A stretch of 64,000 bases of DNA from Pseudonocardia sp. SCN 73-27 (lineage in GTDB: Bacteria > Actinomycetota > Actinomycetes > Mycobacteriales > Pseudonocardiaceae): contig MEGH01000013.1 of NCBI GenBank assembly GCA_001725415.1, positions 1 through 64,000 on the forward strand, in the 5' to 3' direction. A model generated the notes under the pieces. That model was not told the origin of the DNA. It saw only the letters and a program-made list of their open reading frames with translations, and searched no databases. This document shows, one piece after another, positions 9,734 through 27,681 of the stretch. Both the position numbers and the translations under genes were made by a program. How positions within the stretch are numbered: the first letter of the stretch is position 1; the number at the start of each line of letters is the position of its first letter.

Positions 9734-9875
9734 TCCGCGCCCGGTCGCCCGGGGCACCGCTGCTGTCTCCGAGGCCGGGCCTGTGCCGACTGCATTTGCT
9801 CCTATGTTTACCCTTATTAGGCGCAGGGCCCAAAGGGGGGACCGTGGAATTCGGCCAGGGACACGCGAGGCCGGT

Positions 9876-10433: not shown

Positions 10434-10958
10434 GGCTCGACCAGCGGAAACGTTGGACGCGAGATCGCTCGGCAGGCTGTCGTGGCACGGGATGTGACAC
10501 AACTGTCGTCAGACTGGCGGCGTCGCACAACGTCCGGTCGTTGGAAGCGCGCGTTCACGCGGAAGCATCGACGAGCTGCCGAGCGCGCGTTTCGGCCAGC
10601 ACGATCCGCGACCGCATCGCCGACGCGCTCGCCGAGCTGGCCCGCCGCGACCATGCGGTCAGCTCGCCCCAGACGTCTCCCGGTGTCATCGACGAGTTCC
10701 ATGTCGTGGAGGTCCTCGGCCCAGTCATCACGCGCTCCGCCAGTGACAACAGCAGCAGGGAGGCGACCACCGCGCTCTGCTGGTCAAGTGCTCACCCTCC
10801 TCGTCGCGGCGCGGGGCATGTCATCCCATCAGCGTCCTGGTCTCCTCACGACCGGGGCGCCGCCCTTCTCGTGTGCCGACCACTCCTCGCCGAGATCGAC
10901 AGGAGTGCTGTGGGCGCGCGTCGTCACAGCACTCACGTCGGTCTCGGCGAGGATGCGC
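10434..10958. other. About 525 bp with no recognisable gene
   Basis: Lies between the tRNA remnant and the response regulator. All six frames were read; short open frames exist but none resembles a known family. Base composition is slightly lower in GC than the surroundings. It may be decayed mobile-element DNA, which is inference only. Confidence 0.5.
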
Positions 10959-12712: not shown

Positions 12713-12898
12713 CGCCCCGGCGACGACATCGGCCCGGCGCTGGAGAAGGCCTGGCCGCAGGGGCAGGCGGCGATCGTCACACTCACCCCGCGGACCCCGC
12801 ACACGGTGGCCACCGGCAGCGACCACTACGTCCAGGTCCACGACCCCGACCTGGTGGCCGCCACCGCCGAGCTGCTGTTGACGCGGTCGGGTCGCTGA
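12712..12898 (+). pseudogene. C-terminal fragment of an alpha/beta hydrolase
   Basis: The plus strand reads GDDIGPALEKAW..., then TPHTVATGSDHYVQVHDPDLV and a stop at 12898. The GSDHYVQ segment with its His is the catalytic-His end of an alpha/beta hydrolase. Nothing upstream encodes the rest of the enzyme; the fragment abuts the beheaded kinase. Confidence 0.6.
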
Positions 12899-12899
12899 C

Positions 12900-13067
12900 G
12901 CGCAGAGCCTCCTCGCGGTCGGCCTGATCCTGCTCGCCGGCGGCGCTGCACCCGCCGAGCCCACGGCGTACACGGCCGCGCCCTGCCCCAACCCCGTCGT
13001 GCCGGGGTTCCCGCAGCGCCTGGGGCAACAACGTGGCCGGCCTGCTCCCGCTCGTCCACAGCTGACG
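12900..13067 (+). pseudogene. N-terminal fragment of a secreted alpha/beta hydrolase
   Basis: The plus strand encodes a hydrophobic signal-like stretch (SLLAVGLILLAGGAA) followed by TAAPCPNPVVPGFPQ, the start of exported TAP-like hydrolases, and then goes out of frame with a short AWGNNVAGLLPLVHS tail. No start codon or enzyme body is present. Together with the neighbouring C-terminal fragment it marks a recombination junction. Confidence 0.5.
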
Positions 13068-13119
13068 TCGCGGCCGAAATGCACTGCACTCACCGAGGTG
13101 AGCGCCGTACGGTCGCGAC

Positions 13120-13749
13120 GTGGAGGCTGCGGATCCTCGGGACCGGGTCGAGGCGCGCTACGGCGGGCTCGCGGCGACGTCGTGGCCCGGTCCGCATCCC
13201 GGCGCGGCCTCGCCGCGTGAGGAGGAGTACTCCCGGCTCACCGACCCCGGCAGGTACGGCATCGTCCACACCCGCGCCCGGCTCTGGGGCGAGGAGCTGG
13301 CCGCGCTGCCCGGCGTCGACGCCGAGACCGTCGAGCGCGGGGTGCGGCTGACGTCATCGCGGCCGGACACCCTGCCGTTGCTGCTGATGGAGCGCGACGT
13401 GGCCTCGTCCCGTGCCGGCGTGCCCGCGCTCGCGGTCCTGCACCTGTGCGCCGCCCGCCCCGACATCGTGCTGCAGGCCGTGCCGGACTGCGGATGCGAC
13501 GCGTGCGACCGCGGATCGGACGACCTGCTCGACTGCATCGACGAGACGATCGGCATCGTCGTCGACGGCCCGCTGGTGATCGTGCGTGGGGACGGCTGGC
13601 AGCTGCGGTGGTGGCCCCACGGCAGCAGCTCGAGCGGAACCGACCGGCACGTCGAGCTGACGGACATGTGCCGACGCCTCGCCGAGGGCGAGCAGATCAC
13701 GCCCCCGAAGGGCACCGAGGCCTTGATCGGCCGCAGCTGGCTCGCCTGA
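13120..13749 (+). CDS. DUF6226-like conserved protein of unknown function
   Basis: This 209-aa soluble protein starts at GTG 13120. The central YSRLTDPGRYGIVHTRARLW and the CGCDACD.GS..LLDCIDETI segment, a possible metal-binding Cys cluster, recall the actinobacterial DUF6226 family. The biochemical role is unknown. It is intact, with a strong bidirectional terminator right after it, and it is convergent with the DinB gene. The family name is given from memory of the motif, not from a search. Confidence 0.7.
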   Translation: MEAADPRDRVEARYGGLAATSWPGPHPGAASPREEEYSRLTDPGRYGIVHTRARLWGEELAALPGVDAETVERGVRLTSSRPDTLPLLLMERDVASSRAGVPALAVLHLCAARPDIVLQAVPDCGCDACDRGSDDLLDCIDETIGIVVDGPLVIVRGDGWQLRWWPHGSSSSGTDRHVELTDMCRRLAEGEQITPPKGTEALIGRSWLA

Positions 13750-13757
13750 TCGTCGAT

Positions 13758-13805
13758 ACCAACACCAGTGCTGCCACCGAGCGCGGAAACAGCACTGGTG
13801 TTGGT
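13758..13805. terminator. Strong bidirectional hairpin terminator
   Basis: A perfect 16-bp inverted repeat (13758-13773 with 13790-13805) around a 16-nt loop sits in the 68-bp gap between convergent genes. It should stop transcription from both sides. Confidence 0.85.
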
Positions 13806-13817
13806 CTCGACGAACGG

Positions 13818-14558
13818 CTACGCGCGCAGGGCGGCGAGGTCACGTTCGGCGTAGAGGCGGTGCTGCCACTCCTCGTTCAGGACCCCGCGCAGACACTTCG
13901 CCACCGGATAGCTGTTGGCCGGCGGATAGCCGGGGCCGTCGACGGGGGTGGTCGTGCCCGCGAGGGTGTCCTCGGTGAGGCCGTCGATCACCCGGCGGAC
14001 GGTCGCCATCCGGTCGGCGCGCAGGGCGAGGACCTCGTCGAGCGGCGGCCGGGCGTCGCGGTCGCGGGGGACGCGCGGGTCGGGCTCCATCTCGTCGAAC
14101 GGCAGGCTCAACGCGTGCCACGGCGTCGGGTCGCCGAGGATCGCGCGGGACACCCAGATGTCGGTGGCGAACAGCAGGTGCCGCAGTGTCTGGACGAACG
14201 ACCACTCCCCGTCGACGCTCTCGTGCAGCAGCTCGGGCGGCAGCGTACGGGCACGGTCGACGGTCTCCGCCCACAACCGCTCGACGGTGTCCCAGGCCGC
14301 CCCGAAACCGGCGACGTCGGTCGGGCGCATGGTGGCGCGCAACGGGTCCCGGCGGTCGAGCTCGGCCTCGACCAGCGGCCCCACGTCGACGCCGTTGATC
14401 GTCAGGCCTTGGATGTGGCCGTCGATCTCGACCTCACCGATCCACGCGCCCCGCACCCGCACGCGCCACAACTCGGCCCCGGCGACCCGTAGGTTCGTGA
14501 GCCGGGTATCGGCCAGTCTCACGCCGTCGACGTGCGGTCCCGCCTGGTCGTCGGTCAT
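13818..14558 (-). CDS. DinB/YfiT-superfamily protein
   Basis: This 246-aa protein starts at ATG 14558 (MTDDQAGPHVDG). The N-terminal 70 residues form short repeated beta-type segments; the rest is a four-helix DinB bundle with the metal-ligand His pattern (SFVQTLRHLLFATDIW and, near the C-terminus, NEEWQHRLYAERDL). In actinobacteria such proteins are often mycothiol-dependent transferases or metal-dependent hydrolases; which applies here cannot be decided. It is intact and convergent with the DUF6226-like gene. Confidence 0.8.
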   Translation of the reverse strand: MTDDQAGPHVDGVRLADTRLTNLRVAGAELWRVRVRGAWIGEVEIDGHIQGLTINGVDVGPLVEAELDRRDPLRATMRPTDVAGFGAAWDTVERLWAETVDRARTLPPELLHESVDGEWSFVQTLRHLLFATDIWVSRAILGDPTPWHALSLPFDEMEPDPRVPRDRDARPPLDEVLALRADRMATVRRVIDGLTEDTLAGTTTPVDGPGYPPANSYPVAKCLRGVLNEEWQHRLYAERDLAALRA

Positions 14559-14610
14559 CGGGACAGCCTGGCACGGCGCGCCCGAACGCTCCAGGCAACG
14601 CCGCTGGGTC

Positions 14611-14650
14611 GTGAGTGGCAATGGTCGCCACAGCGACCATTGCCGCTCAC
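14611..14650. repeat. 40-bp palindromic repeat, copy 1
   Basis: An 18-bp stem (GTGAGTGGCAATGGTCGC and its complement, one G-T wobble) with a 4-nt loop. A near-identical palindrome occurs at 35261-35300. It lies upstream of the DinB start and downstream of the VOC remnant, so it could end transcription of the minus-strand genes to its right. As a dispersed element it may also be a REP-like repeat. Confidence 0.8.
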
Positions 14651-14654
14651 AGGG

Positions 14655-14771
14655 TTACTCGGGGGCGGCTGTCCACATGAGCTCGAGCTGGATGTTGGCG
14701 GGGTCGCGGAAGACGAGCACGGAGTAGGGCAGGGGGCCGGTCGCGTCGGTGACGCCGGCGTGGGCGACGCC
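14655..14771 (-). pseudogene. C-terminal fragment of a VOC (glyoxalase/bleomycin-resistance) protein
   Basis: Minus-strand translation ends TGVAHAGVTDATGPLPYSVLVFRDP.NIQLELMW with a stop at 14655. The VLVFRDPxNIQLEL strand with its metal-binding Glu is the last strand of a vicinal-oxygen-chelate domain. The preceding 70 or more residues of such a domain are missing; upstream sequence in the same frame is not homologous. Confidence 0.6.
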
Positions 14772-14812
14772 CGTTGCGGCGCTCGTCGCAGGCGCCGCCG
14801 CTGTGGCGCCGC

Positions 14813-15328
14813 TCACGATCGACCGGACGGCGCCCTGGCCGGCGGGCGGTGGAGCATGGGCTCGACGTCGAGCTGGCTGAGCATCGAGTACAGGTCCCAG
14901 AGCACGCGGTAGCTGAGGATGCGGGTGCTGATGTCGCCGAGGTGCGACGTGTGCTTGAACGCCACGAACGTGACGGCGCGGACCTCGACGGCGCGGCCCG
15001 TCGCGGGGATTCCGGGCAGCAGCCAGGGCAGCGGCCGGTCGTGGGTGAACGAGACCAGGTTCTCCTCGACGAGGCGGCGCTGGTCGGAGGTGCGGGTGAT
15101 GCGCTGGAACGCGAGGCCGGCGGGCAGGTGGGGGACGACGTCGTCGGCGAGGAAGGCGCGCAGGTGTTCCGGGCCGGCTCCGGTGCCCATCGGCGCGTGC
15201 TCGACGGTGCAGTCGGGGCCGGCGGCGGCGATCGCGGCGTCGACGTCGTGGTCGGTGTAGACGGCTCGGTGGAACGTGTCCCGGATGCCCTCGACCTGCC
15301 ATATGAGTTTCTGGATCGCGAAGGTCAA
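14813..15328 (-). CDS. NTF2-like/ester cyclase-type protein, start uncertain
   Basis: The segment reads as a single NTF2-like cone domain: a helix with FHRAVYTDHDVDAAIAAAGPDCTVEHAPMGTGAGPEHLRAFL, then LVEENLVSFTHDRPLPWLLPG, then VRAVTFVAFKHTSHLGDIS. These proteins act as small-molecule isomerases, cyclases or binding proteins. No clear start exists; TTG 15328 is the least bad in-frame choice. The frame continues upstream into a piece of enoyl-CoA hydratase, so the 5' end may have been replaced. It is either a short functional protein or another remnant. Confidence 0.55.
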   Translation of the reverse strand: MTFAIQKLIWQVEGIRDTFHRAVYTDHDVDAAIAAAGPDCTVEHAPMGTGAGPEHLRAFLADDVVPHLPAGLAFQRITRTSDQRRLVEENLVSFTHDRPLPWLLPGIPATGRAVEVRAVTFVAFKHTSHLGDISTRILSYRVLWDLYSMLSQLDVEPMLHRPPARAPSGRS

Positions 15329-15398
15329 CCGGCCGCTCCGCTCGTCGTCGACGATCCAGGTTAACTCCGCGTGCGGGTGTCGCGCCGGGGGGAAATGA

Positions 15399-15655
15399 TC
15401 AGCGACCGAGAAAAGCCGGCGTCTCACGGGCGAGGTTCGCGGCGATCCCGATCGCGCAGTCCTCGGTGGCCCACAGCCGGGCCTCCCGGTGAGCTCGCGT
15501 TCGGTGGCGCGGGCGACCTGGTCGGCGAGGTCGTGGAGCATCGGCTCCTTCATGGAGCGGACGGTCAGCGGGGCCGACGCCGCGATCTCCCGCGCGAACC
15601 CGAGGGCGGCGAAGTCGGCGTGGAAGCGGGTGACGCCGGGGATCTTCGACGAAGT
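15399..15655 (-). pseudogene. Enoyl-CoA hydratase C-terminal fragment, frameshifted
   Basis: The minus strand reads FAREIAASAPLTVRSMKEPML, the conserved helix near the C-terminus of crotonase-fold enzymes. After ERELTG the reading must move by one base to continue as REARLWATEDCAIGIAANLARETPAFLGR and stop at 15399. The active-site half of the enzyme is absent. It is a truncated and frameshifted remnant. Confidence 0.7.
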
Positions 15656-15690
15656 GGGGGGCCGAACGTGTTGCGTACTGATCCGGGGCC

Positions 15691-15731
15691 GACGGTCACC
15701 GGACGCTCGCCGCAGGCGTCCGGTGACCGTC
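15691..15731. terminator. Hairpin overlapping the stop codon of the membrane protein gene
   Basis: A perfect 15-bp inverted repeat (15691-15705 with 15717-15731) with an 11-nt loop spans the 3' end of the minus-strand membrane protein gene, consistent with an intrinsic terminator built into its last codons. Confidence 0.7.
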
Positions 15732-16340
15732 GCGCACGACGACGAGCAGCGGCGCGGCGACGGCGGCGAGGAGCACGGGCACCAGACCCGTCCACGCCGC
15801 ACCCGCGAACGGCAGGACGCCGAGCAGGGCGAGGCCGATGTGCGGGCCGAGCGGGACCCGGCGCAGCCAGGTCGCCGCGAGGAGCGCGACCCCGCCCAGC
15901 CCGCCGATCAGCGCGAGCAGCGGCGCCGCCCCGGCCGCCATCAGCAGCTCGGCCGCGGCGAGGACGGTGAGCAGGACCCGGACGGGCTCCCCGGCGAGGG
16001 TGCGCACCGCGTCGCCGCCCCCGTCCATGGCGGCCAGCACCGCCGCGACGGTCAGCAGGGCCGCCGGCGCCCAGGCGAGGACGCCCACCGTCGACAGGCT
16101 CAGCAGCCCCGGTCCGAGGAGCCCGAGCGCCCACATCGCCCCCGGCCGGCGGAGCCGGTGCGCCGCGAGGAGCGCGACCCCACCGAGCGCCACCGTCACC
16201 AGGCCGAGGCCGACCGGTGCGAGCTTGTCGCCGGTCCAGTCGGGGATGACCGCACCGAGCGTGGCCTGGACGAGCCCGGCCACGACGAGCAGCACCCCAC
16301 CGGCGACGCCGATCCCGACGGCGGCACCCCGGCGGGTCAC
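15696..16340 (-). CDS. Predicted integral membrane protein
   Basis: This 214-aa protein starts at GTG 16340 and overlaps the end of the upstream flavoprotein gene by 4 nt (GTGA), so they form an operon. It consists of about six hydrophobic segments rich in Ala, Leu, Val and Gly joined by short Arg-containing loops. No catalytic or transport motif is visible and I do not recognise the family. Coupling to a Tat-exported flavoprotein suggests a role in the membrane or as its redox partner, which is inference. Confidence 0.75.
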   Translation of the reverse strand: MTRRGAAVGIGVAGGVLLVVAGLVQATLGAVIPDWTGDKLAPVGLGLVTVALGGVALLAAHRLRRPGAMWALGLLGPGLLSLSTVGVLAWAPAALLTVAAVLAAMDGGGDAVRTLAGEPVRVLLTVLAAAELLMAAGAAPLLALIGGLGGVALLAATWLRRVPLGPHIGLALLGVLPFAGAAWTGLVPVLLAAVAAPLLVVVRDGHRTPAASVR

Positions 16341-17521
16341 GACGCCACCATCGCGACGGACCGCCGCGGCGTGGGCCTGCCGTCGCGGACCGGCCTGCCG
16401 ACGCGGAACGTCAGCAACGGTGTCGCGCCCGGCGGCAGCAGCGCCGCGAACCGGGGCGCGAACGTCGCGGGCGCGCCCGTCGACGTCTCGCGGTCGATCC
16501 GCTCGGTCACCTGGTTCATGTGCTGCAGGGCGATCCCAGCGGCGGTGGCGCGCAGGTGCACCCGCTGCAGCAGCCGGCCCGCCTCCAGCTGGGTGCCCCG
16601 GTCGTCGGGCGTGGTCGTCGTGACCACGCCGTAGGCGGCTGCGGTGGCGACGTGCACGTCACGGGTCCGGGCGACCCAGAACCGGTCGCCCTCCACGCGC
16701 GACGTGGCGGGCAGCAGCCGCGCCGCACCGAGCTCGAACGGGCTCAGCCCCTGCCCGTCGAGGACCAGCCCGTCCCGACGGGCCTGGGCCTCGTCGTTGC
16801 TCGCGCGGAACCACGCGAAGTTGTCGACCGACTGCTGCTCGTCGGCGCACAACGCCTCGGCGGCGTCGACCAGGAGCGTGCCGAGCGCCGCCGTCGGGCC
16901 CGGGCCGGTGATCCAGTGCAGGTCGACGCCCGGGGGGCGGGGGCCGGCCAGCGCGGCGAGGTCGGCGGGCGCGATCGGGTCGGGCAGGTAGGGGCCGCGG
17001 TTCGTGTGCCGCCGATCGATGACGTCGTGCAGTGGATCGGGCCGCGCCGGTTCCGGCGTGAGACCGACGCGTGCGACCCGCGCCCCGGACGGCCCGTCGG
17101 GCAGCAACGTCACGTCCGGGCGGAGACCGCGCGGGCCGCACGCGATCGTCAGGTTCTCCAGCGCGCACCCCAGCCCGACATAGCGTTCCCGCGAGAACGG
17201 GTCCACCGAACCGGTCGTGCGGGTGGGGTCGGCGAACATCTGGATCGCGTCGTCGCGCACGACGAACGTCCAGGGCTGGGTGTTGTGCGGGCTGGCGGCG
17301 AGCACCGCGGCGGCCACCGCGCCACCCGCGCCGGGGATGTCGCGCCAGTCGCGCCACGGCTCGTGTGCGGGACCGCCACCCGGGTCGAGGACCCCCGAGT
17401 CGTAGACGCGATAGCCGAGCAGGCCGGTACCCGCCACCGCGACGGTCGCGGCGCCGAGGCCGATGCCACGCAGCAGGGACCGGCGGGTCACCGGACGGGG
17501 CTCGTCGAGGGTCGAGGGCAC
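16337..17521 (-). CDS. Acg-type FMN-binding nitroreductase-fold protein with a Tat signal
   Basis: This 394-aa protein starts at GTG 17521. A twin-arginine signal (TRRSLLRGIGLGAATVAVAGTGLLG, residues about 13-36) predicts export in folded form or anchoring by the uncleaved helix. The mature part has ASPHNTQPWTF, the FMN-binding start of nitroreductases, then DRRHTNRGPY, matching the Acg/Rv3131 group linked to dormancy and hypoxia in mycobacteria. In that group a lid occupies the active site, and a flavin storage or redox role has been proposed. It is divergent from a LAL regulator (gap 159 bp) that may control it. Confidence 0.85.
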   Translation of the reverse strand: MPSTLDEPRPVTRRSLLRGIGLGAATVAVAGTGLLGYRVYDSGVLDPGGGPAHEPWRDWRDIPGAGGAVAAAVLAASPHNTQPWTFVVRDDAIQMFADPTRTTGSVDPFSRERYVGLGCALENLTIACGPRGLRPDVTLLPDGPSGARVARVGLTPEPARPDPLHDVIDRRHTNRGPYLPDPIAPADLAALAGPRPPGVDLHWITGPGPTAALGTLLVDAAEALCADEQQSVDNFAWFRASNDEAQARRDGLVLDGQGLSPFELGAARLLPATSRVEGDRFWVARTRDVHVATAAAYGVVTTTTPDDRGTQLEAGRLLQRVHLRATAAGIALQHMNQVTERIDRETSTGAPATFAPRFAALLPPGATPLLTFRVGRPVRDGRPTPRRSVAMVAS

Positions 17522-17680
17522 GGGCGTCCACCTCTGGTCGGTCGGGACGGCGCAGTCAACCGTCGAACCGGGTGGTCGCACACCACCCCGGGTGCCCGAC
17601 CACCCCGGGTGGGCGCTGGCGGCACACACCGGACGGCGGGCACACTGCGTCACGAACCACCGCCGGGGGACGGGAGGGGC

Positions 17681-19888
17681 ATGACCGCCGATCGGCCAGG
17701 GCCGCCGCTCCTCACGGTCAAGCACGCCGTCCCACCGGTCCGGTCGTCGACGGTCCGGCGCAGCCGGCTCACCGACGTGCTCGACGGCGACGACGTGCGG
17801 CTCGTCGCCGTCGTCGCGCCGGCGGGCTGGGGCAAGACGAGCCTGCTCGGGGCGTGGGCCGACGGCCGCGACGACGTGGCCTGGGTGTCCCTCGACGAGA
17901 GCGACGACGACCCCCACCGGTTCTGGGCCTACGTCCTCGCCGCCCTCTCCGCCCCGGACGGGGGCGGTGACGCGATCGGACCCGGCCCGCGCGACGCCCT
18001 CGCGGCGAGCAGGATCGACCTCCTCCTCCCGCTGCTGGTCAACGCGCTCGCCGCCGCGCCACGCCGGCACGTCCTCGTCCTCGACGACTACCACGTCCTC
18101 ACCGACCCCCAGATCCACGAGGGCGTCGAGTTCCTCGTCGCCCACCTGCCGCCGACGGCGCGTGTCGTCGTCGCAGGCCGGGTCGACCCGCCGCTGCCGC
18201 TGGCCCGCCTGCGGGCACGCGGTGAGCTGGCGGAGCTGCGGGCGTCCGACCTGCGGTTCACGCAGCCCGAGGCCGCCGCACTGGTGTCCGGTGTCCTCGG
18301 TGCCCCGGTCGACGACGCGACCGCCGCCACCGCGTGGGAACGCACCGAGGGCTGGGCCGTGGGGCTGCAGCTCACCGGGCTCGCCCTGCGTACCGGTGGC
18401 GCCGCCCCGGCCCGCGACGGTGACCACCTGCTCGACTACTTCACCGCCGAGGTGCTGCCCGCGTTGGCACCGCGGCAGCGGGACCTGCTGGTCGGGTGCG
18501 CTCCGCTCGACCGGCTGTCCGGTCCGCTCTGCGACGCCGTGCTGAAGACGACGGGGTCCGGCGCCGTCCTCGCATCGCTGGAGCGCGCCGAGCTGTTCGT
18601 CGTCTCCCTCGACGCGGGGCGCGAGTGGTACCGCTGCCACCTGCTGCTGCGCGGGGCGATGCTGCGGCAGGCCGGTGTCGACCCCGCCGACGTCCTGCGC
18701 CGCGCCGCCGACTGGTTCCTCGCGCACGGCCGCCGGGACGACGCCGTCCGGCATCTCCTCGCCGCGGGCGACGGCCAGGCAGCCGCGGCCGTGCTGGACT
18801 CGTCGGAACAGTGGTTCCTCGACCGCGGATCGGCGGCGGCATTCCTGCAGCTCGGCGAGGCACTGCAGCCGGAGACCGTCTCGCCCGGACTCGCACTCGC
18901 GCTCGCCTACGGTGCGGCGACGTGCGGGCGGTCCGATCGCGTCGGGCACTGGCTCGACGTGTGCGACGCCGGGATCACCGACGACACCGTCCTCGTCGCG
19001 TGGCGGTCCCCGCGCGCCGCCGCGGCCGTGACCCGCGCGATGTTCGGGGTGCCCGAGTCGGCGGCCGGCGACGCCGTCGCGCTGGCCCGGGAGGCGCTGC
19101 GGGCCGAGGGCGCCGACGGCAACCCGATCGCCACCATCGGGCTCGGTGCCTGCCTCGTGCGGGCGGGCGCGTTCGCCGAGGCAGCCGACCTGCTCGCCGA
19201 CACGTGGGAACGCCGTGGTGCCGACGGCTGGCCGACCACCCTGGTCCTGCAGGTCGGCGGCGTCCTCGGGCTGTGCCTGCACGAGCTCGGCCGCGGCGAC
19301 GAGGTCGATCGCCTGCTCGCCGCGACGGCCCCGGTCGTCGAGGAGGCGGACGGCGACCGGGCAGCCGCGGCCCTCGCCGCGCTGCCCCGGGTCGTCGAGG
19401 GCATGCGGGCGTCGGCGGCGGGTCGTCCCGACGTCGCCCGCGCGACGCTGCGGCACGCGGTCGTCCTCGCCGCCGCCGTCGAACGGCCGACCACCCGCGT
19501 CCTCGCCCTCGTCGCGCTCGCCGACGCCGAGCTGGCCTGCGGTGACCGCGCCGCGGCGCGTGCCGCGCTCGCCCAGGCCCGTGAGATCGCCGCCGACGAC
19601 GCCCCGGCCCCCGTCGCGGCGGCCCGGTTGGCCGGAGCGGAGTCCCGGATCGGGCGGGCGGCGGTCCGCGCCGCGGTCGGGGCCGGAGCGATGTTCGAGG
19701 AGCTCACCGACCGCGAGCTCGCCGTGCTCCGGGCCCTGCCCGGTCCGGCCAGCCGTCGTGACATCGGTGCCGCGCTGAACCTGTCGATCAACACGGTCAA
19801 GGCCTACACGGCGAGCCTCTACCGCAAGCTCGGTGTCGGGTCACGGGAGGATGCCGTCGCGGCCGGACGGCGCCTCGGGCTCATCTGA
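17681..19888 (+). CDS. Large ATP-binding LuxR-family (LAL/MalT-like) transcriptional activator
   Basis: This 735-aa protein starts at ATG 17681 with GGGAGGGG upstream. It has an N-terminal P-loop (APAGWGKT, 46-53), Walker B (HVLVLDDYHVL), a winged/helical middle and a tetratricopeptide-like helical region, ending in a LuxR helix-turn-helix (LTDRELAVLRALPGPASRRDIGAALNLSINTVKAYTASLYRKLG). Such STAND-type activators bind an inducer and ATP, oligomerise and switch on nearby genes. The divergent Acg-type flavoprotein operon is the likely target. The length is a little short for the class (about 850-900), with a compact TPR region. Confidence 0.9.
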   Translation: MTADRPGPPLLTVKHAVPPVRSSTVRRSRLTDVLDGDDVRLVAVVAPAGWGKTSLLGAWADGRDDVAWVSLDESDDDPHRFWAYVLAALSAPDGGGDAIGPGPRDALAASRIDLLLPLLVNALAAAPRRHVLVLDDYHVLTDPQIHEGVEFLVAHLPPTARVVVAGRVDPPLPLARLRARGELAELRASDLRFTQPEAAALVSGVLGAPVDDATAATAWERTEGWAVGLQLTGLALRTGGAAPARDGDHLLDYFTAEVLPALAPRQRDLLVGCAPLDRLSGPLCDAVLKTTGSGAVLASLERAELFVVSLDAGREWYRCHLLLRGAMLRQAGVDPADVLRRAADWFLAHGRRDDAVRHLLAAGDGQAAAAVLDSSEQWFLDRGSAAAFLQLGEALQPETVSPGLALALAYGAATCGRSDRVGHWLDVCDAGITDDTVLVAWRSPRAAAAVTRAMFGVPESAAGDAVALAREALRAEGADGNPIATIGLGACLVRAGAFAEAADLLADTWERRGADGWPTTLVLQVGGVLGLCLHELGRGDEVDRLLAATAPVVEEADGDRAAAALAALPRVVEGMRASAAGRPDVARATLRHAVVLAAAVERPTTRVLALVALADAELACGDRAAARAALAQAREIAADDAPAPVAAARLAGAESRIGRAAVRAAVGAGAMFEELTDRELAVLRALPGPASRRDIGAALNLSINTVKAYTASLYRKLGVGSREDAVAAGRRLGLI

Positions 19889-19894
19889 ACGTCG

Positions 19895-19975
19895 TCAGAG
19901 GTTGACCAGCACGATCCCCGCCGTGACGACGACGGCCGCCGCGATCCGCCACACCCCGAACCGCTCCTTGAACAG
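19895..19975 (-). pseudogene. EamA/DMT transporter C-terminal fragment (minus strand)
   Basis: Minus strand: LLFKERFGVWRIAAAVVVTAGIVLVNL then stop at 19895. This is the last transmembrane helix of a drug/metabolite transporter of the EamA fold. The piece that should come directly before it lies next door on the opposite strand. Confidence 0.65.
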
Positions 19976-19983
19976 CAGTGGTG

Positions 19984-20064
19984 CTGTGGGCGCAGACCAG
20001 CGGCGCGACGGCGGCCGTCGCCGCGTTGCGGGAGAGCGGCATCGTGTTTGGCGCGCTGATCGGG
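19984..20064 (+). pseudogene. EamA/DMT transporter penultimate helix, inverted
   Basis: Plus strand: SGATAAVAALRESGIVFGALIG, the conserved penultimate segment of EamA transporters (usually AALRETSV.FGALIG). In an intact gene it immediately precedes LLFKERF, here found on the minus strand at 19975. The two pieces face each other, so a local inversion broke the gene. The first eight or so helices are absent. Confidence 0.6.
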
Positions 20065-20143
20065 AGCCCTTGTCAACCGCCGTAACGGTCGACTGTTCGC
20101 CTGCGAACGACAGTGGTTCGGAGGCGGGACGGAGAGGACAGCG

Positions 20144-20389
20144 GTGGCGAAGCGACGTATCGGTGGTGCCGGCGGTGGAAGTGATCGCGGGGGCAAGGGC
20201 GGTGGAGCGTTGATCGCGGTTCTCGTCGCCGTCGTCCTGGCAGCGGGAGGGGCGACGGTCCGCTACACGGGTACCGCCTATGCCTCGGGGCTCGACGGGC
20301 GAACCGTCGCCAACGCCCAGGCCGAGCCCGTCGTCCGCGGCTGGGCGGGACTCGCGCTCACGAGCGTCGTGACCAACGCCGTCGGCTGA
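20144..20389 (+). CDS. Small hypothetical membrane or secreted protein
   Basis: This 81-aa protein starts at GTG 20144 with GGAGAGGAC upstream. A basic, glycine-rich start (residues 1-20) is followed by one hydrophobic helix (ALIAVLVAVVLAAGGATV) and a 40-residue polar tail. It could be a single-pass inner-membrane protein or one exported with an uncleaved signal. No family is recognised. An inverted repeat GTTCG-N4-CGAAC lies about 50 bp upstream, possibly an operator. Confidence 0.55.
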   Translation: MAKRRIGGAGGGSDRGGKGGGALIAVLVAVVLAAGGATVRYTGTAYASGLDGRTVANAQAEPVVRGWAGLALTSVVTNAVG

Positions 20390-22253: not shown

Positions 22254-23264
22254 TCAGGGCACGAGCACGGCGCGGCCGACGACGCGACGCTCGTCGACGG
22301 CCCGGTGCGCGTGGACGGCGTCGGCGAGCGGGAAGGTCTGGTGGACGGGCCGGACGCGACCGCCGGCGACGAGGTCCATCGCGCTGGCGAAGGTCGCGGC
22401 GCGGGTGGAGCTGGAGCCGGTGATCACGGCTTCCTTCCCGAACACGAACGCCGGGTAGAGGCTGATCCGCTCGCGCTGCAGCTGCCCGGTGAAGACATAG
22501 CGGCCGCGTGGGGCGAGGGCCCGGAAACAACCGCCGAACAGGTCGGGATGGCCGACGTTGTCGAGCACCACCTGCGGCCCGCGGCCGTCGGTGAGGTCGG
22601 TGAGCCGGGCGGCGAGGTCGCCGTCGGCGGTGACGACCACGTCGTCGGCGCCGTGGGCGGCCAGCAGCACCGCCTTGGCGGGTGACGACGTCACGGCGAC
22701 GACCCGGGCGCCGAGCGCGGCGGCGACCTGCATCGCGTGCAGCCCGAGCCCGCCTCCGGCCCCGGTGACGACGACGGTCTCGCCCGGCCGTAGGTGCGCG
22801 ACGTCGTCGAGGGCCTGCAGGCAGGTGCCGACCGCGCAGGAGGTGATCGCGGCGTCGGCGGACGCGACGCCGTCGGGGACCGCGAGCAGGGTGTCCTGTT
22901 CGAGGGCGACGTACTCGGCGCTCCCGCCGTGGACGAAGGTCTTGTCGGGGCAGGAGAACTCGTCGCCGTCGGCGCAGGCGGGGCAGCGGGTGCATGTCGT
23001 GAACTGCTTGCAGGCGGCCCGGTCGCCGACGGCGAACCCGCGCACGTCGGCCCCGACCTCGACGACCTCGCCGGCGATCTCGTGTCCCAGGACGGCGGGG
23101 AGGGGGACGCGGGTGAGGCCGGCGCGGTCGGCGGAGTCGTGTCCGCACACCCCGCACGCGTGCACGCGGACGACGACCTGCGATCCCGCCGGCACCGGGT
23201 CGGGCAGGTCGACGTACTCCAGCACCTCCGGGCCGCCCGGCGCGGCGAACGACACCGCCTTCAC
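22254..23264 (-). CDS. Zinc-dependent alcohol dehydrogenase
   Basis: This 336-aa medium-chain dehydrogenase starts at GTG 23264. Catalytic zinc: Cys in HACGVCGHD and HE in LGHEIAGEV. Structural zinc: four Cys in FTTCTRCPACADGDEFSCP. The NAD(P)-binding motif is GAGGGLGLHA. It would interconvert an alcohol and an aldehyde or ketone in the cytoplasm. It starts within 3 nt of the preceding cyclase stop and is the last gene of a four-gene operon (thiolase-like, DUF35, cyclase, dehydrogenase), which suggests a step in the same catabolic route. Confidence 0.9.
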   Translation of the reverse strand: MKAVSFAAPGGPEVLEYVDLPDPVPAGSQVVVRVHACGVCGHDSADRAGLTRVPLPAVLGHEIAGEVVEVGADVRGFAVGDRAACKQFTTCTRCPACADGDEFSCPDKTFVHGGSAEYVALEQDTLLAVPDGVASADAAITSCAVGTCLQALDDVAHLRPGETVVVTGAGGGLGLHAMQVAAALGARVVAVTSSPAKAVLLAAHGADDVVVTADGDLAARLTDLTDGRGPQVVLDNVGHPDLFGGCFRALAPRGRYVFTGQLQRERISLYPAFVFGKEAVITGSSSTRAATFASAMDLVAGGRVRPVHQTFPLADAVHAHRAVDERRVVGRAVLVP

Positions 23265-23266
23265 GG

Positions 23267-24217
23267 TCAGACGATCGCGTAGGCGTTGGCGGGGCTCCCG
23301 ACGCCGCGGGGGACGGGCAGCGCGCCGGAGGTCAGCAGGAACTCGTAGCGTCCCGACTCCGCGCAGTACGCCGACAGCTCCGGCAGATGGAACAGCTCGC
23401 CGACGACCATGCCCAGCAACGGGATCAGCCGCCGGTGCTGGAACCCCTTCACCCGGTCCACCGGGAGCACCTCGACGGCCAGGTTGTCGGCGGCAACACC
23501 GGTGATCCCGTTGTCCCACAGCCATTCCGCGGTCTCGCGGGCGCCGTCGAGGCCGGGCATCGACATGCCCCCGTTCATCGATCCGCGCTGTTCGAGGCGG
23601 CGCTCCCGCGACTGCGCGCGGTACCACTCGAGCCAGCCGGTGCGCAGCACGAGGAAGTCGCCGGGACGGAACTCGACACCGTCGGCGCGGGCGACCTCGT
23701 CGAGCAGGGCGCCGGTGATGGCGAACGACTCGTTCCCGGCCAGCGGGGCGCCCTGCCGTTCCCGGTAGCGGGCGACGTCGACGAGCACGCCCCGGCCGAT
23801 CGGGCCGCGCCGGGAGAACCGGTCGATGCCCAGGTCGTCGGTGGAGTCGAGCTGCTGCTCGCTGCGCCCGCCCCAGTAGCCGTGGTCGCGAAACTTGATG
23901 TGGCGCAACCCGTCCCACTGCGTGGAGTACTGGAGGTAGAAGTTGTCGAGCTTGTCGTCGCGGCCGACGTCGAGGGCCTCGACGGTCTGCCGGTACGGCT
24001 CGCGCGAGGCGAACAGGCCCGGATCGGGCTCGTCGAGGCGCAGGGACAGCGGGATGATCCGGCCCTCGCGCACGAGCCGGGTCGCGGCCAGCACCTGCTC
24101 GGGGCCGATGCGGTTGAGCGAGCCGAGCTCGTCGTCACGCCCCCAGACGTCCCAGGCGTGCCGCTCGTCGGTGCCCTCGACGAACGGCAGGTCGGCGAAG
24201 CGGGGGATGTCGGTCAC
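23267..24217 (-). CDS. Cyclase-family (kynurenine formamidase-like) hydrolase
   Basis: This 316-aa protein starts at GTG 24217 with GGAGGG directly upstream. It shows the metal-dependent cyclase fold: STQWDGLRHIKF is this subfamily's version of the HxGTHxDxPxH metal site, followed by GVLVDVARYR and FLVLRTGWLEWY. Relatives hydrolyse amide, ester or lactone bonds, or cyclise small acids. It overlaps the DUF35 gene by 4 nt (GTGA). In this operon a lactone or ester hydrolysis step is plausible, but the substrate is unknown. Confidence 0.88.
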   Translation of the reverse strand: MTDIPRFADLPFVEGTDERHAWDVWGRDDELGSLNRIGPEQVLAATRLVREGRIIPLSLRLDEPDPGLFASREPYRQTVEALDVGRDDKLDNFYLQYSTQWDGLRHIKFRDHGYWGGRSEQQLDSTDDLGIDRFSRRGPIGRGVLVDVARYRERQGAPLAGNESFAITGALLDEVARADGVEFRPGDFLVLRTGWLEWYRAQSRERRLEQRGSMNGGMSMPGLDGARETAEWLWDNGITGVAADNLAVEVLPVDRVKGFQHRRLIPLLGMVVGELFHLPELSAYCAESGRYEFLLTSGALPVPRGVGSPANAYAIV

Positions 24218-24666
24218 GAGCCCTCCTGGGAACTCTCGCGGAGCACGAAGCACAGCACGCCGTAGCCGTCGGCGGCCGCCAGGTAGGCGGCGTCGACCGG
24301 GGTGCCGTGCGGGGGTGGGGTGTCGGGGTCGCAGAGGATGCGGCCGGGCAGCCTCACGCCCGCCGAATCCATGTCGATCTGGGCGCTGACCAGTGGGACC
24401 TCACCCGCCCACAGCGGGTCTCCGGTGGCCCGCCGGACCGTGACGGCGGCGGAGACGGTACCGGCCGTCGCGACGTCGGTCCATTCGTGGTCGAAGCTCC
24501 CGCACCGCCAGCAGACGGGACCGAGCGGGAAGCGGACGGTGCCGCAGGGGGTGCAGCGCTGCAGCCGCAGCCGGCCCTCGGCGAGCCCGCGCCAGAACGG
24601 CTCGGTCTCCGGATGGACGACCGGGGCAGGGCCCCGATGGTCGCCGACCTGACGCAACCGCGACAT
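24214..24666 (-). CDS. Zn-ribbon/OB-fold DUF35 protein, partner of the thiolase-like protein
   Basis: This 150-aa protein has an N-terminal rubredoxin-like zinc ribbon (CTPCGTVRFPLGPVCWRC, four Cys) followed by an OB-fold (WTDVATAGTVSAAVTVRR). DUF35 proteins act as acyl-CoA-binding subunits of thiolase-fold enzymes; in steroid degraders the DUF35 domain of ChsH2 docks the aldolase Ltp2. Here the gene directly follows a thiolase-like gene, so a two-component complex is likely. Confidence 0.88.
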   Translation of the reverse strand: MSRLRQVGDHRGPAPVVHPETEPFWRGLAEGRLRLQRCTPCGTVRFPLGPVCWRCGSFDHEWTDVATAGTVSAAVTVRRATGDPLWAGEVPLVSAQIDMDSAGVRLPGRILCDPDTPPPHGTPVDAAYLAAADGYGVLCFVLRESSQEGS

Positions 24667-24691
24667 CAGGGCCTCGTTCCGTCGGAGAGCG

Positions 24692-25879
24692 TCATCGGGT
24701 GAAGATCAGGGAGTCGCCCCACGGCGTCGTCCACTGCAGCACCTCCGCCCCCGCGATCTGCCGCGGTCCGCACTCGCCGCGCAGCTGCCGCACCATCTCG
24801 ACCAGATGGTTGTAGCCGCCGAAGTGCCCCTCCGACAGCAGCCCACCGTTGGTGTTGACGGGCAGCGCCGCCCCGACGCCCAGTCCGTGCGACGCGATCC
24901 ACCCCGGCGCTTCGCCCTCGCCGCAGAACCCGAAGCGCTCCAGCGTCATCCACACGTTGCTGGAGAACGAGTCGTACACGTAGAGGCCGTCGACGTCGTC
25001 GCGGCCGACCCCGGCCATCTCGTACACGGGATGGTGCTCGGGGCGCAGCGGGGTCTCGTCGGCGAACCCGACGCCGAGCCCGGGCCGGGAGAACAGCACG
25101 TAGCTGTCCCGGTTGGACCGGATGCTCTGCGCCCCGGCGACGCGCACCCCGTGCGTGCGCAGGTCGGCGGCCCGGTCGGCGGCGGCCAGGACCAGGCAGG
25201 TCGCGCCGTCGTTGGCCAGCGAGTAGTCACAGCGTCGGAACGGGCCCGAGATGACGGGTTCGCGCAGGTAGGACTCCTGCGTCAGCGGCTTGTCGCGCAG
25301 GATCGCCATGGGGTTGAGCCGTGCGTTCTCCCGGAACCCGATCCCGATGCGCGCCAGGTCCTCCGATGCCGCGCCGTAGCGCTCCATGTAGCGCTGCGCG
25401 ACGAGCGATGTCGCCGCACCCGGGGTGTCGACGCCGTGCACCGACCACTCACCGTGCCCGCCGCCGGTGTCGCGCAGGCCTTCGACGGTGCCGTGCCCGC
25501 CCAGCCCGCCGAGGTGGCGGGCGTAGCCGCGGCCGTTGGTGACGGTGTTGGCGATGGCGACGACGTCGGCCAGCCCCGCCATGATCGCCAGCGACGCGTG
25601 CGCGACCAGCCCCGTCGACCACCGCCCGTGCGCCCACGCCTGGTCGACGTAGCGGCAGTCCAGCCCCATGACGGCGGTGAACTCCTCGTAGTCGACGCCG
25701 GTGGGGGAGCCGTGGGCGGTGGCGAAGCCGTCGACGTCCGCGCGGTCGAGCCCGCAGTCGGCCAGCGCCGCCGTGAACGCCTCGGCCTGCAGCCGCATCG
25801 GGCTGCGCCCCAGGTCGAACCCGAACTGCTCGCTCGTGCCGACGCCGACGACGCACACGTCGGTCCCGCCCAACCTCAT
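24692..25879 (-). CDS. Thiolase-fold (SCPx/Ltp2-like) protein lacking the nucleophilic Cys
   Basis: This 395-aa protein has the thiolase duplicated fold with NTNGGLLSEGHFGGYNH near the C-terminus. At the usual nucleophile position, where thiolases have a Cys in a CxSG-type loop, it reads AWAHGRWSTGLVAHAS with no Cys. Thiolase-fold aldolases of steroid side-chain degradation (Ltp2) share this lack and cleave beta-hydroxyacyl-CoA without a thiolase Cys. By analogy this protein with its DUF35 partner may be a retro-aldolase; that is inference. It heads the operon and is divergent from a second such pair. Confidence 0.88.
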   Translation of the reverse strand: MRLGGTDVCVVGVGTSEQFGFDLGRSPMRLQAEAFTAALADCGLDRADVDGFATAHGSPTGVDYEEFTAVMGLDCRYVDQAWAHGRWSTGLVAHASLAIMAGLADVVAIANTVTNGRGYARHLGGLGGHGTVEGLRDTGGGHGEWSVHGVDTPGAATSLVAQRYMERYGAASEDLARIGIGFRENARLNPMAILRDKPLTQESYLREPVISGPFRRCDYSLANDGATCLVLAAADRAADLRTHGVRVAGAQSIRSNRDSYVLFSRPGLGVGFADETPLRPEHHPVYEMAGVGRDDVDGLYVYDSFSSNVWMTLERFGFCGEGEAPGWIASHGLGVGAALPVNTNGGLLSEGHFGGYNHLVEMVRQLRGECGPRQIAGAEVLQWTTPWGDSLIFTR

Positions 25880-26059
25880 CCGTGCCCTCCCGGTCCCGGC
25901 GCGGCGCCGAGTCTCGTCCTAACACAGCCGCGGCGCCGGACCTGAGCGGTTTCGCGATCACGGAGCCTGCGGGTCTCGGGCGAATCCGGAGGTACGGTCG
26001 TTGTGCCGCAGGGGGATGCCGCCGAAGGCCCGCGTCCCCGGACGCCGCGGGAGGTGCCG

Positions 26060-26500
26060 ATGTCGGACCAGCAGGTCGTCGACGCCGCCTGGGCGCGTCC
26101 CGTCCCGGTCCCCGACGACGTCACCGCCCCGTTCTGGGCGGCGGCACGCGAGGGCAGGCTCGTCGTGCAGCGCTGTGCGCGCTGCGGGACGTTCCAGCAT
26201 CCGCCGCGGGCGCGGTGCACGTCGTGTGGTGGCGAGCCGGTGTTCACCGAGGTCAGTGGCGACGCGACGCTGGTCAGCTGGACGACGGCGCACGACCCGG
26301 TCGTCCCCGGCCGCCCACGCGGGCTGGCACCGGTCGTCATCGTCGTCGTCGAGCTGGTGGAGCAGCCCGGACTGTGGCTGGTCTCGGATGTGGACGAGCC
26401 GGCGGAGCTGAGGATCGGCGCGAACATGTGCGTCGCGTTCGACGCCACCGCAGGCGACCAGGTGCTGCCGCGGTTCCACCCAGTCGAGGAGCCCTCGTGA
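26060..26500 (+). CDS. Zn-ribbon/OB-fold DUF35 protein (second pair)
   Basis: This 146-aa protein starts at ATG 26060 with GGGAGGTG upstream. Zinc ribbon: CARCGTFQHPPRARCTSC (four Cys); the OB-fold follows (VSGDATLVSWTTAHDPV and FDATAGDQVLPRF). It is the same family as the protein at 24214-24666 but clearly divergent. Its stop overlaps the next start (GTGA), so it is coupled to its thiolase-like partner, with order DUF35-thiolase, opposite to the divergent pair. Confidence 0.9.
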   Translation: MSDQQVVDAAWARPVPVPDDVTAPFWAAAREGRLVVQRCARCGTFQHPPRARCTSCGGEPVFTEVSGDATLVSWTTAHDPVVPGRPRGLAPVVIVVVELVEQPGLWLVSDVDEPAELRIGANMCVAFDATAGDQVLPRFHPVEEPS

Positions 26501-27681
26501 CCTGGGCGAACCGGTGTGCGGTCGCCGTCGCAGGGGTGGGGTTCTCCGCGGTCGAACGGCGCACGTCGACTCCGCTGGGCCGGTTCGCCGACGACGCCGC
26601 GGCCGCCGCGATCGCCGACGCCGGGCTCACCCCCGACGCCGTCGACGGCCTCGCCACCTACCCGACGCCGCCCTTCGAGGGTGCGGTGGCGCGCAGCGGC
26701 GAGGACATGGTCGACGTCGAGCATTTCCTGCAGGCACCCTGGGCGCGCGGCGTGCGCTGGTACTCCCAGGCCGGCGAGGGGATGATCACGACGTCGGTGC
26801 GCGACGCCGTCCACGCCCTCGCCGCGGGCGCCTGCAGCACCGTGCTGGTGTGGCGGGCGATGTACGTCCCGCCCGGCACCTACGGCACCCACGCCGGCAC
26901 CGCCGGTGGCGACGCCGCGTTCGCCGCGCCCTACGGCTGCGCGGGCGCGATCCCCTGGCACGCCCTGGCCTACCGCCGCTACCTGGAGCTCTCCGGCGGG
27001 CGGCGCGAGGCGCTGGGGGCACTCGTCGTCGGGCAGCGACGCAACGCCAACCGCAACCCGCACGCCGTCTTCGCCGACCGCCTCATGACCGCGCAGGACT
27101 ACGCCGGGGCGCGGACGGTCGCCGACCCGCTGTGCCTGTTCGACTGCGACGTGCCGGTCACCGCCGCGATCGCGCTGGTGCTGACGACGGCCGACCGGGC
27201 CCGCGACCTGCCCCGCCCACCCGTGTACGTCGCCGCCGCCGCGCAGCAGACGACGCGCCGCGAGCACCGGCTGCACTACACGATGGGCGACCACGTCGAG
27301 GCCGGGACACCGTTGGTCGACGAGCTGTGGGAGCAGTCGGGCCTCGCCCAGGCCGACGTCGGGACGGCCCAGCTCTACGACGGGTTCGCGCCCTCGGTCC
27401 TGTACTGGCTGGAGGCCGCCGGGTTCTGCGGCCGGGGCGAGGCGCTCGACTTCGTCCAGGACGGGCGCGTCGCCGTCGAGGGGAAGCTGCCGGTCAACAC
27501 CGGCGGTGGCAGCCTCTCGCAGGGCCGGATGCACGGCATGGGGCATCTCGCCGAGGCCGTCCTGCAGCTGCGCGGCGACGCGGGGGAGCGCCAGGTCGTC
27601 GACCCGCGTGCGGCGCTGGTGCTGGTCGGGTCGCCGATGCTGCGCGGCGGCGGGGTGCTCCTCACCTCGGAGGAGCTGTGA
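26497..27681 (+). CDS. Thiolase-fold (Ltp2-like) protein lacking the nucleophilic Cys (second pair)
   Basis: This 394-aa protein starts at GTG 26497 (VTWANRCAVAVAGVGFSAVER). The thiolase fold is visible from GRFADDAAAAAIADAG and the C-terminal LPVNTGGGSLSQGRMHGMGHL. The nucleophile loop reads WYSQAGEGMITTSV, without Cys, and the conserved GHPxG loop is altered to GRMHG. It is predicted to act with the upstream DUF35 protein as an acyl-CoA aldolase or a non-canonical thiolase; the chemistry is inferred from Ltp2. Two divergent copies suggest paired or successive cleavages. Confidence 0.88.
   Translation: MTWANRCAVAVAGVGFSAVERRTSTPLGRFADDAAAAAIADAGLTPDAVDGLATYPTPPFEGAVARSGEDMVDVEHFLQAPWARGVRWYSQAGEGMITTSVRDAVHALAAGACSTVLVWRAMYVPPGTYGTHAGTAGGDAAFAAPYGCAGAIPWHALAYRRYLELSGGRREALGALVVGQRRNANRNPHAVFADRLMTAQDYAGARTVADPLCLFDCDVPVTAAIALVLTTADRARDLPRPPVYVAAAAQQTTRREHRLHYTMGDHVEAGTPLVDELWEQSGLAQADVGTAQLYDGFAPSVLYWLEAAGFCGRGEALDFVQDGRVAVEGKLPVNTGGGSLSQGRMHGMGHLAEAVLQLRGDAGERQVVDPRAALVLVGSPMLRGGGVLLTSEEL

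What the first reader, a model, noticed from the sequence alone, without database searches (positions are those of the whole stretch)
22254..27681. Divergent pairs of Cys-less thiolase-fold proteins with DUF35 partners, a cyclase and an alcohol dehydrogenase
Two thiolase-like proteins (24692-25879 and 26497-27681) have lost the nucleophilic Cys: the loops read AWAHGRWSTG and WYSQAGEG. Each is adjacent to a Zn-ribbon/OB-fold DUF35 protein, in opposite gene order. Thiolase-fold aldolases of the Ltp2 type with a DUF35 partner cleave steroid side chains. Here the setting is different: no steroid gene is seen, and a kynurenine-formamidase-like cyclase and a zinc alcohol dehydrogenase are co-transcribed. 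Two divergent copies suggest two successive C-C cleavages, or one heteromeric complex, of an unidentified acyl-CoA. This is the best candidate for an undescribed pathway in the window.
Basis: partly seen in the sequence, partly recalled or inferred. Interest (0 to 1): 0.72.

Follow-up and report, generated by a model that had tools for sequence, protein, structure and literature searches.

The report
Two DUF35-paired thiolase-fold aldolases
A conserved six-gene unit in an actinomycete appears to encode two different carbon-carbon bond-cutting enzymes built on the thiolase fold, each with its own zinc-protein partner, for breaking down a still unknown acid; it matters because it gives a defined gene set with which to find the pathway.

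Summary
At 22254-27681 lie Zn-ADH, PF04199 cyclase, DUF35-A and thiolase-A (minus strand), divergent from DUF35-B and thiolase-B (plus). Both thiolases lack the nucleophilic Cys and carry the aldolase Tyr (YDSF, YDGF). The six genes form one unit: same order and place in two same-genus genomes, all under purifying selection, absent from a third where the flanks adjoin.

The Ltp2 reading is only partly right. A belongs to a separate, well-supported clade with H-G-R where the thiolase Cys loop lies and His at the Ltp2 Tyr344 position. B belongs to a clade next to Ltp2 with Arg at that position (29 of 29 loci); in 20 of those 29 the thiolase is fused to a DUF35 domain. Clusters elsewhere repeat the HGR-aldolase/DUF35/Zn-ADH set, two of them with an Ltp2-clade aldolase; four carry Rieske oxygenase genes, one of these in this genome.

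Best explanation: two retro-aldolases for beta-hydroxyacyl-CoAs in a non-steroid (probably cyclic or aromatic acid) catabolic route; substrate unknown. No characterised cluster was found in nine searches of an open-licence paper library. New variant of a known kind.

The parts
24692..25879 (-). thiolase-A: Cys-less thiolase-fold protein of the HGR-1 clade; H84-G85-R86, Y302 (YDSF), H352
24214..24666 (-). DUF35-A, zinc ribbon Cx2Cx10Cx2C plus OB fold, presumed partner of thiolase-A
   Evidence: PF12172, PF01796; motif
23267..24217 (-). PF04199 cyclase-family hydrolase of the STQWD subfamily (GTG start)
   Evidence: 56.5 bits, cut-off 23.1; 5ibz E 1.6e-36; alignment
22254..23264 (-). Zn-dependent medium-chain alcohol dehydrogenase
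   Evidence: PF08240, PF00107; alignment with nine relatives, structural-zinc Cys kept
26060..26500 (+). DUF35-B, zinc ribbon Cx2Cx10Cx2C plus OB fold, presumed partner of thiolase-B
   Evidence: PF12172, PF01796; motif; overlaps thiolase-B by 4 bases
26497..27681 (+). thiolase-B: Cys-less thiolase-fold protein of the YDGF/Arg clade next to Ltp2; Y294, R344
25908..25927 (.). 20 bases identical in three genomes inside the divergent intergenic region; candidate shared regulatory site
   Evidence: alignment; place, one match in the window

Best explanation
The six genes encode two distinct thiolase-fold retro-aldolases, each working with its own DUF35 protein (by analogy an alpha2-beta2 complex), plus a Zn-alcohol dehydrogenase and a cyclase-family hydrolase, as part of the breakdown of a non-steroid, probably cyclic or aromatic, carboxylic acid as its CoA ester. 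In each aldolase the thiolase Cys is gone and the Tyr that replaces the HDxF His takes the proton from the beta-hydroxyl of a 3-hydroxyacyl-CoA; the C-alpha to C-beta bond breaks to give acetyl- or propionyl-CoA and a ketone or aldehyde. In A the acid that reprotonates the enolate is probably His352 (the old thiolase GH His); in B the equivalent residue is Arg344, so another group must do it. The Zn-ADH then oxidises or reduces the released carbonyl, and the cyclase opens a lactone or ring. Shown: Cys loss, Tyr, clades, predicted fold, DUF35 pairing by gene neighbourhood, unit conservation, selection, recurrence of the module. Inferred: the reaction, the acid residue, complex formation, the roles of ADH and cyclase, order of steps. 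Unknown: the substrate and where the CoA is put on (no ligase lies in the unit).
For: Both thiolases lack the Cys and carry Tyr at the catalytic base position of TcLtp2 and CtSal, and of IpfD (roles from PMC12329534, abstract and passages). IpfD/IpfE are called a retro-aldolase, and elsewhere a thiolase, that gives propionyl-CoA from ibuprofen in PMC9195938 (passages); I took IpfD from pIBU218 by gene order and its PF22691 hit, and it shares Cys loss and YDAF. Models match Ltp2 best (A tied with 4u4e). A DUF35 match lies in the held stretch of all 20 HGR-1, 11 HGR-2, 4 B-clade and 27 4u4e-like loci examined; in B's clade 20 of 29 loci have a DUF35 zinc ribbon in one frame with the thiolase. 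Unit kept in L163 and L164 with dN/dS 0.11-0.34. HGR-aldolase/DUF35/Zn-ADH recurs: this ADH type in 8 of 20 HGR-1 and 4 of 11 HGR-2 loci against 0 of 27 4u4e-like loci. Rieske oxygenase genes lie in four of those twelve ADH-bearing loci: L019 (this genome; Rieske alpha, beta subunit and catechol dioxygenase by Pfam) and L083 (Pfam), and by BLAST only L089 and L101. L086 holds a cyclase, an Ltp2-clade aldolase, an HGR-2 aldolase, DUF35s, Zn-ADH and CoA ligases together.
Against: No activity is known to me for any HGR or YDGF/Arg protein. TcLtp2's second Tyr and its motif His are missing in both; Sal needs a Cys that both lack. Arg is a poor general acid, so B could do something else. The unit has no CoA ligase, hydratase or dioxygenase, so no route to a 3-hydroxyacyl-CoA is visible in it. 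The ADH panel was built from HGR loci (four of the eight HGR-1 positives are panel members), and 12 of 20 HGR-1 loci show no such ADH in the held stretch; only 5 of 20 show the cyclase and 2 of 20 a Rieske gene. HGR-1 row L103 lacks the Tyr (LDSF) and the His. In the 107-row tree the long-branched L077_17986 (YEGF, Gly at the Arg place) falls with B's clade.
Confidence: 0.55

Rival explanations
1. Steroid side-chain aldolases: A and B are Ltp2/Sal-type enzymes of sterol or bile-acid catabolism in this genome.
For: NCBIfam best hit of both is PRK07855 lipid-transfer protein (228 and 259 bits); both models match 6ok1 best, A tied with 4u4e.
Against: Scores lie far below the curated cut-off of 469 bits; A is outside the Ltp2 and Sal clades and B next to Ltp2, not in it; the catalytic pair differs; against TcLtp2 three other own-genome proteins score higher (48, 43 and 41% identity) than B (39%) or A (32%); no MaoC-type or acyl-CoA-dehydrogenase gene in the unit. 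Steroid ring genes were not searched genome-wide.
Confidence: 0.1
2. A and B form one mixed complex (heteromeric aldolase or acylase, as PhlABC is built from unlike subunits).
For: Tightly linked divergent genes kept together in three genomes; a second thiolase-fold gene lies in the held stretch of 8 of 20 HGR-1 and 5 of 11 HGR-2 loci, though it is sometimes a second HGR-1 or a Cys thiolase; L077 holds HGR-1/DUF35 and a DUF35/B-like pair about 8 kb apart.
Against: Each has its own DUF35; B's clade is fused to DUF35 elsewhere and three such records show no HGR gene noted beside it (annotation only); among the 19 other HGR-1 loci only L077 has a protein that groups with B's clade, and that one lacks the Arg.
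Confidence: 0.15
3. They are not aldolases but decarboxylating, Claisen-type or Friedel-Crafts-type acyl transfer enzymes on a Cys-less thiolase fold.
For: The fold also serves PhlC-type acylases and the archaeal thiolase/HMG-CoA synthase complex; His352 of the thiolase GH motif is kept in A.
Against: Acyl transfer in these relatives uses the nucleophilic Cys (recalled), absent here; Tyr in place of the HDxF His is shared with the characterised aldolases.
Confidence: 0.15

Closest known systems
TcLtp2-ChsH2(DUF35) steroid aldolase (6ok1)
   Same: Thiolase fold, no nucleophilic Cys, YDxF Tyr, DUF35 partner with C4 zinc ribbon; top fold match of both models
   Different: YDHF His and Tyr344 not kept (A: Ser, His; B: Gly, Arg); different clade (A) or neighbouring clade (B); no steroid operon genes in the unit
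CtSal-CtShy(DUF35) bile-acid aldolase (9myr)
   Same: Cys-less thiolase fold, catalytic Tyr, DUF35 (PMC12329534, abstract and passages)
   Different: Sal's catalytic Cys304 and C3H1 zinc finger absent; separate clade
IpfD/IpfE ibuprofen retro-aldolase (pIBU218)
   Same: Cys-less, YDAF, DUF35 neighbour; this genome's HGR paralogue on C68 also sits with a CoA ligase and a ring-hydroxylating dioxygenase
   Different: Different clade; Tyr at the 344 position; C68 proteins are only 25-34% identical to Ipf proteins
PDB 4u4e, putative Sphaerobacter thiolase
   Same: Cys-less, YDSF, His at the 344 position as in A
   Different: Other clade, no HGR motif; no function stated in its title

Membership tests
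Ltp2 steroid aldolase | thiolase fold without nucleophilic Cys | tested here: met
Ltp2 steroid aldolase | catalytic Tyr294 (first residue of YDHF) | tested here: met
   Y302 in A, Y294 in B
Ltp2 steroid aldolase | oxyanion His of YDHF | tested here: not met
   Ser in A, Gly in B
Ltp2 steroid aldolase | second catalytic Tyr344 | tested here: not met
   His352 in A, Arg344 in B
Ltp2 steroid aldolase | NCBIfam PRK07855 curated cut-off | tested here: not met
   228.4 and 259.1 bits, cut-off 469
Ltp2 steroid aldolase | lies in the Ltp2 clade | tested here: not met
   A elsewhere; B in its own clade, 100/99, within a 17-row group (99/96) that also holds Ltp2
Ltp2 steroid aldolase | cleaves 17-hydroxy steroid C3 side chain | not testable with these tools
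   needs enzyme assay
Sal bile-acid aldolase | YDC catalytic Cys | tested here: not met
   YDSF, YDGF
Sal bile-acid aldolase | C3H1 zinc finger in DUF35 | tested here: not met
   both DUF35 are Cx2Cx10Cx2C
IpfDE aryl-acyl-CoA retro-aldolase | adjacent CoA ligase and ring-hydroxylating dioxygenase | tested here: not met
   absent from the window stretch 14001-36000; present at the HGR paralogue on C68
SCP2-type thiolase | nucleophilic Cys and HDxF His | tested here: not met
DUF35 (zf-ChsH2 / OB_ChsH2_C) | Pfam cut-offs and zinc ribbon | tested here: met
PF04199 cyclase | Pfam cut-off | tested here: met
   56.5 bits, cut-off 23.1
PF04199 cyclase | canonical HxGTHxDxPxH metal motif (recalled) | tested here: not met
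   STQWDGLRH
Ltp3/Ltp4 of sterol catabolism (recalled) | orthology to Ltp3 or Ltp4 | not tested
   no reference sequence was at hand; one search gave a paper listing only

The most novel reading that the evidence does not exclude
The HGR clade is a new class of thiolase-fold C-C lyase whose emptied Cys loop has become a His-Gly-Arg substrate-binding site, with Arg86 (and, in B, Arg344 at the Ltp2 Tyr344 place) holding a substrate carboxylate. The window unit would then cut a beta-hydroxy dicarboxylic-type acyl-CoA twice with two unlike aldolases, in a catabolic route not yet described; this fits the malyl-type lyases (CitE-like, isocitrate-lyase family), mesaconyl-CoA-hydratase-like and MmgE genes beside several HGR-1 genes elsewhere.
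Probability: 0.25. Interest if true: 0.72.

Novelty: new variant of a known kind. Interest (0 to 1): 0.5.

Why it matters
Thiolase-fold aldolases with DUF35 partners are characterised for steroids (Ltp2, Sal) and, genetically, for ibuprofen (IpfDE). The HGR and YDGF/Arg clades suggest that the kind is much wider, and give two testable active-site variants. The compact six-gene unit and its larger relatives (about 15 genes in Streptomyces sp. S465 and Rhodococcus sp. DK180) make the substrate findable by growth screens and gene removal, and the enzymes could be useful C-C lyases.

Tried and rejected
Considered and set aside: (1) A and B as a recent duplication: they are 32% identical and in different clades. 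(2) My own early note that B's mycobacterium-like hits at about 39% were canonical Ltp2: wrong; of loci L027-L055 (29), 20 read as DUF35-thiolase fusions and all 29 have YDG[FW] and Arg at the Ltp2 Tyr344 place. L033, L039 and L040 gave no row and were re-read: no C4 zinc ribbon was found in their frames; L032 likewise. (3) A steroid setting: not supported, but steroid ring genes were not searched genome-wide. (4) Foreign base composition: GC of the unit is 0.73-0.76 against 0.71-0.78 around it. (6) Complex prediction: only single chains can be predicted. (7) Substrate from literature: searches listed no paper that I could tie to the unit, the HGR clade or the Rhodococcus/Streptomyces relative; the library is open-licence only and I read passages of three papers (PMC12329534, PMC9195938, PMC7793797), not whole texts. 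The indolepyruvate oxidoreductase in the relatives recalls EdcC of estrogen catabolism (PMC7793797, passages); no extradiol dioxygenase is annotated beside it in DK180. (8) Families missing from the VIA-align lists are not excluded by that.

Of those 80 loci 61 have a row in the 107-row tree; 19 do not, because my gene caller missed, truncated or split the gene, or (L078) because it is the same contig as L018. Re-read, L072, L075 and L076 also show H-G-R, YDAF and His; L084 and L085 lack the first half. In one search one row per locus was counted: L074 (near copy of L073) and the second copies in L067, L068 (HGR-1), L062 and L070 (HGR-2) were left out, and the window counts once in HGR-1 and once in the B clade. 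Gene calls are from a simple codon-usage script, so starts and small genes are rough. The names HdeD, lspA-like, GNAT and the like for neighbours are by eye.
Full report
Observation. The six genes are real and stand at the stated coordinates. Thiolase-A (24692-25879, -) is followed after 25 bases by DUF35-A (24214-24666), which overlaps the cyclase (23267-24217) by 4 bases; the Zn-ADH (22254-23264) follows. On the plus strand DUF35-B (26060-26500) overlaps thiolase-B (26497-27681) by 4 bases. The two arms share a 180-base intergenic region.

Unit. A search of 62 same-genus genomes (own included) with thiolase-A found matches at E up to 1e-60 in 4. In two of them (95% identity; loci L163 and L164) all six genes lie in the same order, orientation and neighbourhood, at 79-95% protein identity to the window. 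The fourth, G321, has 46% and 43% relatives in other clusters. In G313 the HdeD-like and lspA-like neighbours (names by eye) adjoin with 22 bases between them and the block is missing. A GNAT-like gene beside the block is called in the window and L163 but not in L164, so the six genes, not seven, are the unit. Pairwise dN/dS over three genomes is 0.11-0.14 for thiolase-A, 0.21-0.24 for thiolase-B, 0.25-0.27 for both DUF35, 0.13-0.25 for the cyclase and 0.28-0.34 for the ADH; three neighbouring control genes give 0.09-0.32. All six look like working genes. Twenty intergenic bases (25908-25927) are identical in all three genomes. In a draw of 298 genomes of the order, thiolase-A-like genes at that threshold occur in 3, own included, and thiolase-B-like genes in 50, own included.

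Families. In a 59-row tree (ultrafast bootstrap/SH-aLRT) thiolase-A falls in a clade of 16 rows (100/100) that joins a second clade of 8 rows at 100/99; I call them HGR-1 and HGR-2 (107-row tree). Of 23 HGR-1 rows of the larger tree all have H-G-R where the Cys loop lies, and 22 have Tyr302 and His352; the exception is L103. Three more loci that the gene caller missed show the same. All 13 HGR-2 rows have G-R, YDNF and a Tyr at the Ltp2 Tyr344 place. HGR-1 rows come from Actinomycetota, Pseudomonadota, Myxococcota, Binatota, Rokuibacteriota, Rhodothermota and a haloarchaeal plasmid. Thiolase-B falls in a clade of 10 with three other free-standing and six DUF35-fused proteins (100/99), inside a 17-row group (99/96) that also holds Ltp2. 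All 29 B-like loci L027-L055 have YDG[FW] and Arg at the Tyr344 place, and 20 of the 29 have a DUF35 zinc ribbon upstream in the same frame. In the larger, quick tree the long-branched L077_17986, with Gly at the Arg place, also falls with B's clade. IpfD lies apart from both, with an own-genome protein.

Setting elsewhere. A DUF35 match was found in the held stretch of all rows of four groups (20 HGR-1, 11 HGR-2, 4 B-clade, 27 4u4e-like; the window counts in two). The window's type of Zn-ADH (38% identity or more over 60% of its length) is in 8 of 20, 4 of 11, 1 of 4 and 0 of 27; the cyclase in 5, 0, 1 and 0; Rieske genes in 2, 2, 0 and 0. The panel was drawn from HGR loci, which favours them. 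A large cluster with CoA ligase, cyclase, HGR-1, DUF35, LLM oxidoreductase, FAD oxidase and Zn-DH occurs in Rhodococcus DK180, Streptomyces S465, the same-family genome G138 and the same-genus genome G321; the first three also hold the indolepyruvate-oxidoreductase gene. In Nocardia (L018) the LLM, indolepyruvate-oxidoreductase and Zn-DH genes are not in the held stretch. On contig C68 of this genome, and in a Beijerinckiaceae MAG (L083), HGR-1, DUF35 and Zn-ADH stand with catechol dioxygenase, an isocitrate-lyase-family gene, CoA ligase and Rieske oxygenase genes. L089 and L101 (HGR-2) also hold Rieske-type genes by BLAST. L086 combines a cyclase (34%), an Ltp2-clade aldolase, HGR-2, two DUF35, Zn-ADH and CoA ligases; L101 has an Ltp2-clade aldolase, HGR-2, two DUF35, Zn-ADH and a CoA ligase. 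L077 holds HGR-1/DUF35 and, about 8 kb on, DUF35 and the B-like protein named above. So the window's combination of an HGR aldolase with an Ltp2-side aldolase, DUF35s and Zn-ADH is seen in at least two distant bacteria, though an Arg-bearing B-clade gene was seen beside an HGR gene only in the window's genus.

Mechanism. The nearest worked-out logic outside steroids that I found is ibuprofen: CoA ligase, ring dioxygenase, then retro-aldol release of propionyl-CoA and 4-isobutylcatechol (PMC9195938, passages). The C68 locus looks like a relative of that logic with an HGR enzyme, although its proteins are only 25-34% identical to Ipf proteins. For the window unit I infer retro-aldol cleavage of a 3-hydroxyacyl-CoA by A and B, with the ADH acting on the released carbonyl and the cyclase as a hydrolase. 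Which acts first, and on what, is open.

Verdict. New variant of a known kind.

Noticed in passing
L019 (own genome, contig C68) 957-14478: Apparent aromatic catabolic cluster: TPP enzyme, SDR, Rieske alpha and ring-hydroxylating beta subunit, CoA ligase, isocitrate-lyase-family, catechol dioxygenase, Zn-ADH, DUF35, HGR-1 aldolase, FeS-FAD oxidoreductase; looks like an ibuprofen-type ring-dioxygenation plus retro-aldol route.
   Followed up: partly
L034-L055 (20 loci), L170 8089-9750, L172 7371-9056: DUF35 fused to a Cys-less thiolase (YDGF, Arg) in one frame of about 550 aa or more; in L170 and L172 annotated as OB-fold protein, near CoA transferase, amidohydrolase or acyl-CoA dehydrogenase genes.
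   Followed up: partly
L062 5139-25092 and L082 393-21139: Conserved cluster of about 15 genes (MFS, MmgE, hydantoinase A/B in L082, CoA ligase, cyclase, HGR aldolase, LLM, indolepyruvate oxidoreductase, FAD oxidase, Zn-DH, ALDH) for which I know no pathway.
   Followed up: partly
L063 7716-18310: Haloarchaeal plasmid with three thiolase/DUF35 pairs, a CoA ligase and a cyclase; one pair is HGR-1.
   Followed up: no
L065 and L067, about 5000-20300: HGR-1 genes beside a CitE-like lyase, mesaconyl-CoA-hydratase-like, CaiB, MmgE and hydantoinase A/B set, suggesting a branched dicarboxylate end product.
   Followed up: no
L077 9983-19155: HGR-1/DUF35 pair and, 8 kb on, a DUF35 with a B-like thiolase that has Gly where the B clade has Arg.
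   Followed up: no
window 206-3701: 2Fe-2S, FAD and molybdopterin subunit-like genes of a xanthine-dehydrogenase-type hydroxylase (judged by eye from the translations), followed by an aldehyde-dehydrogenase-like gene; not linked to the finding.
   Followed up: no
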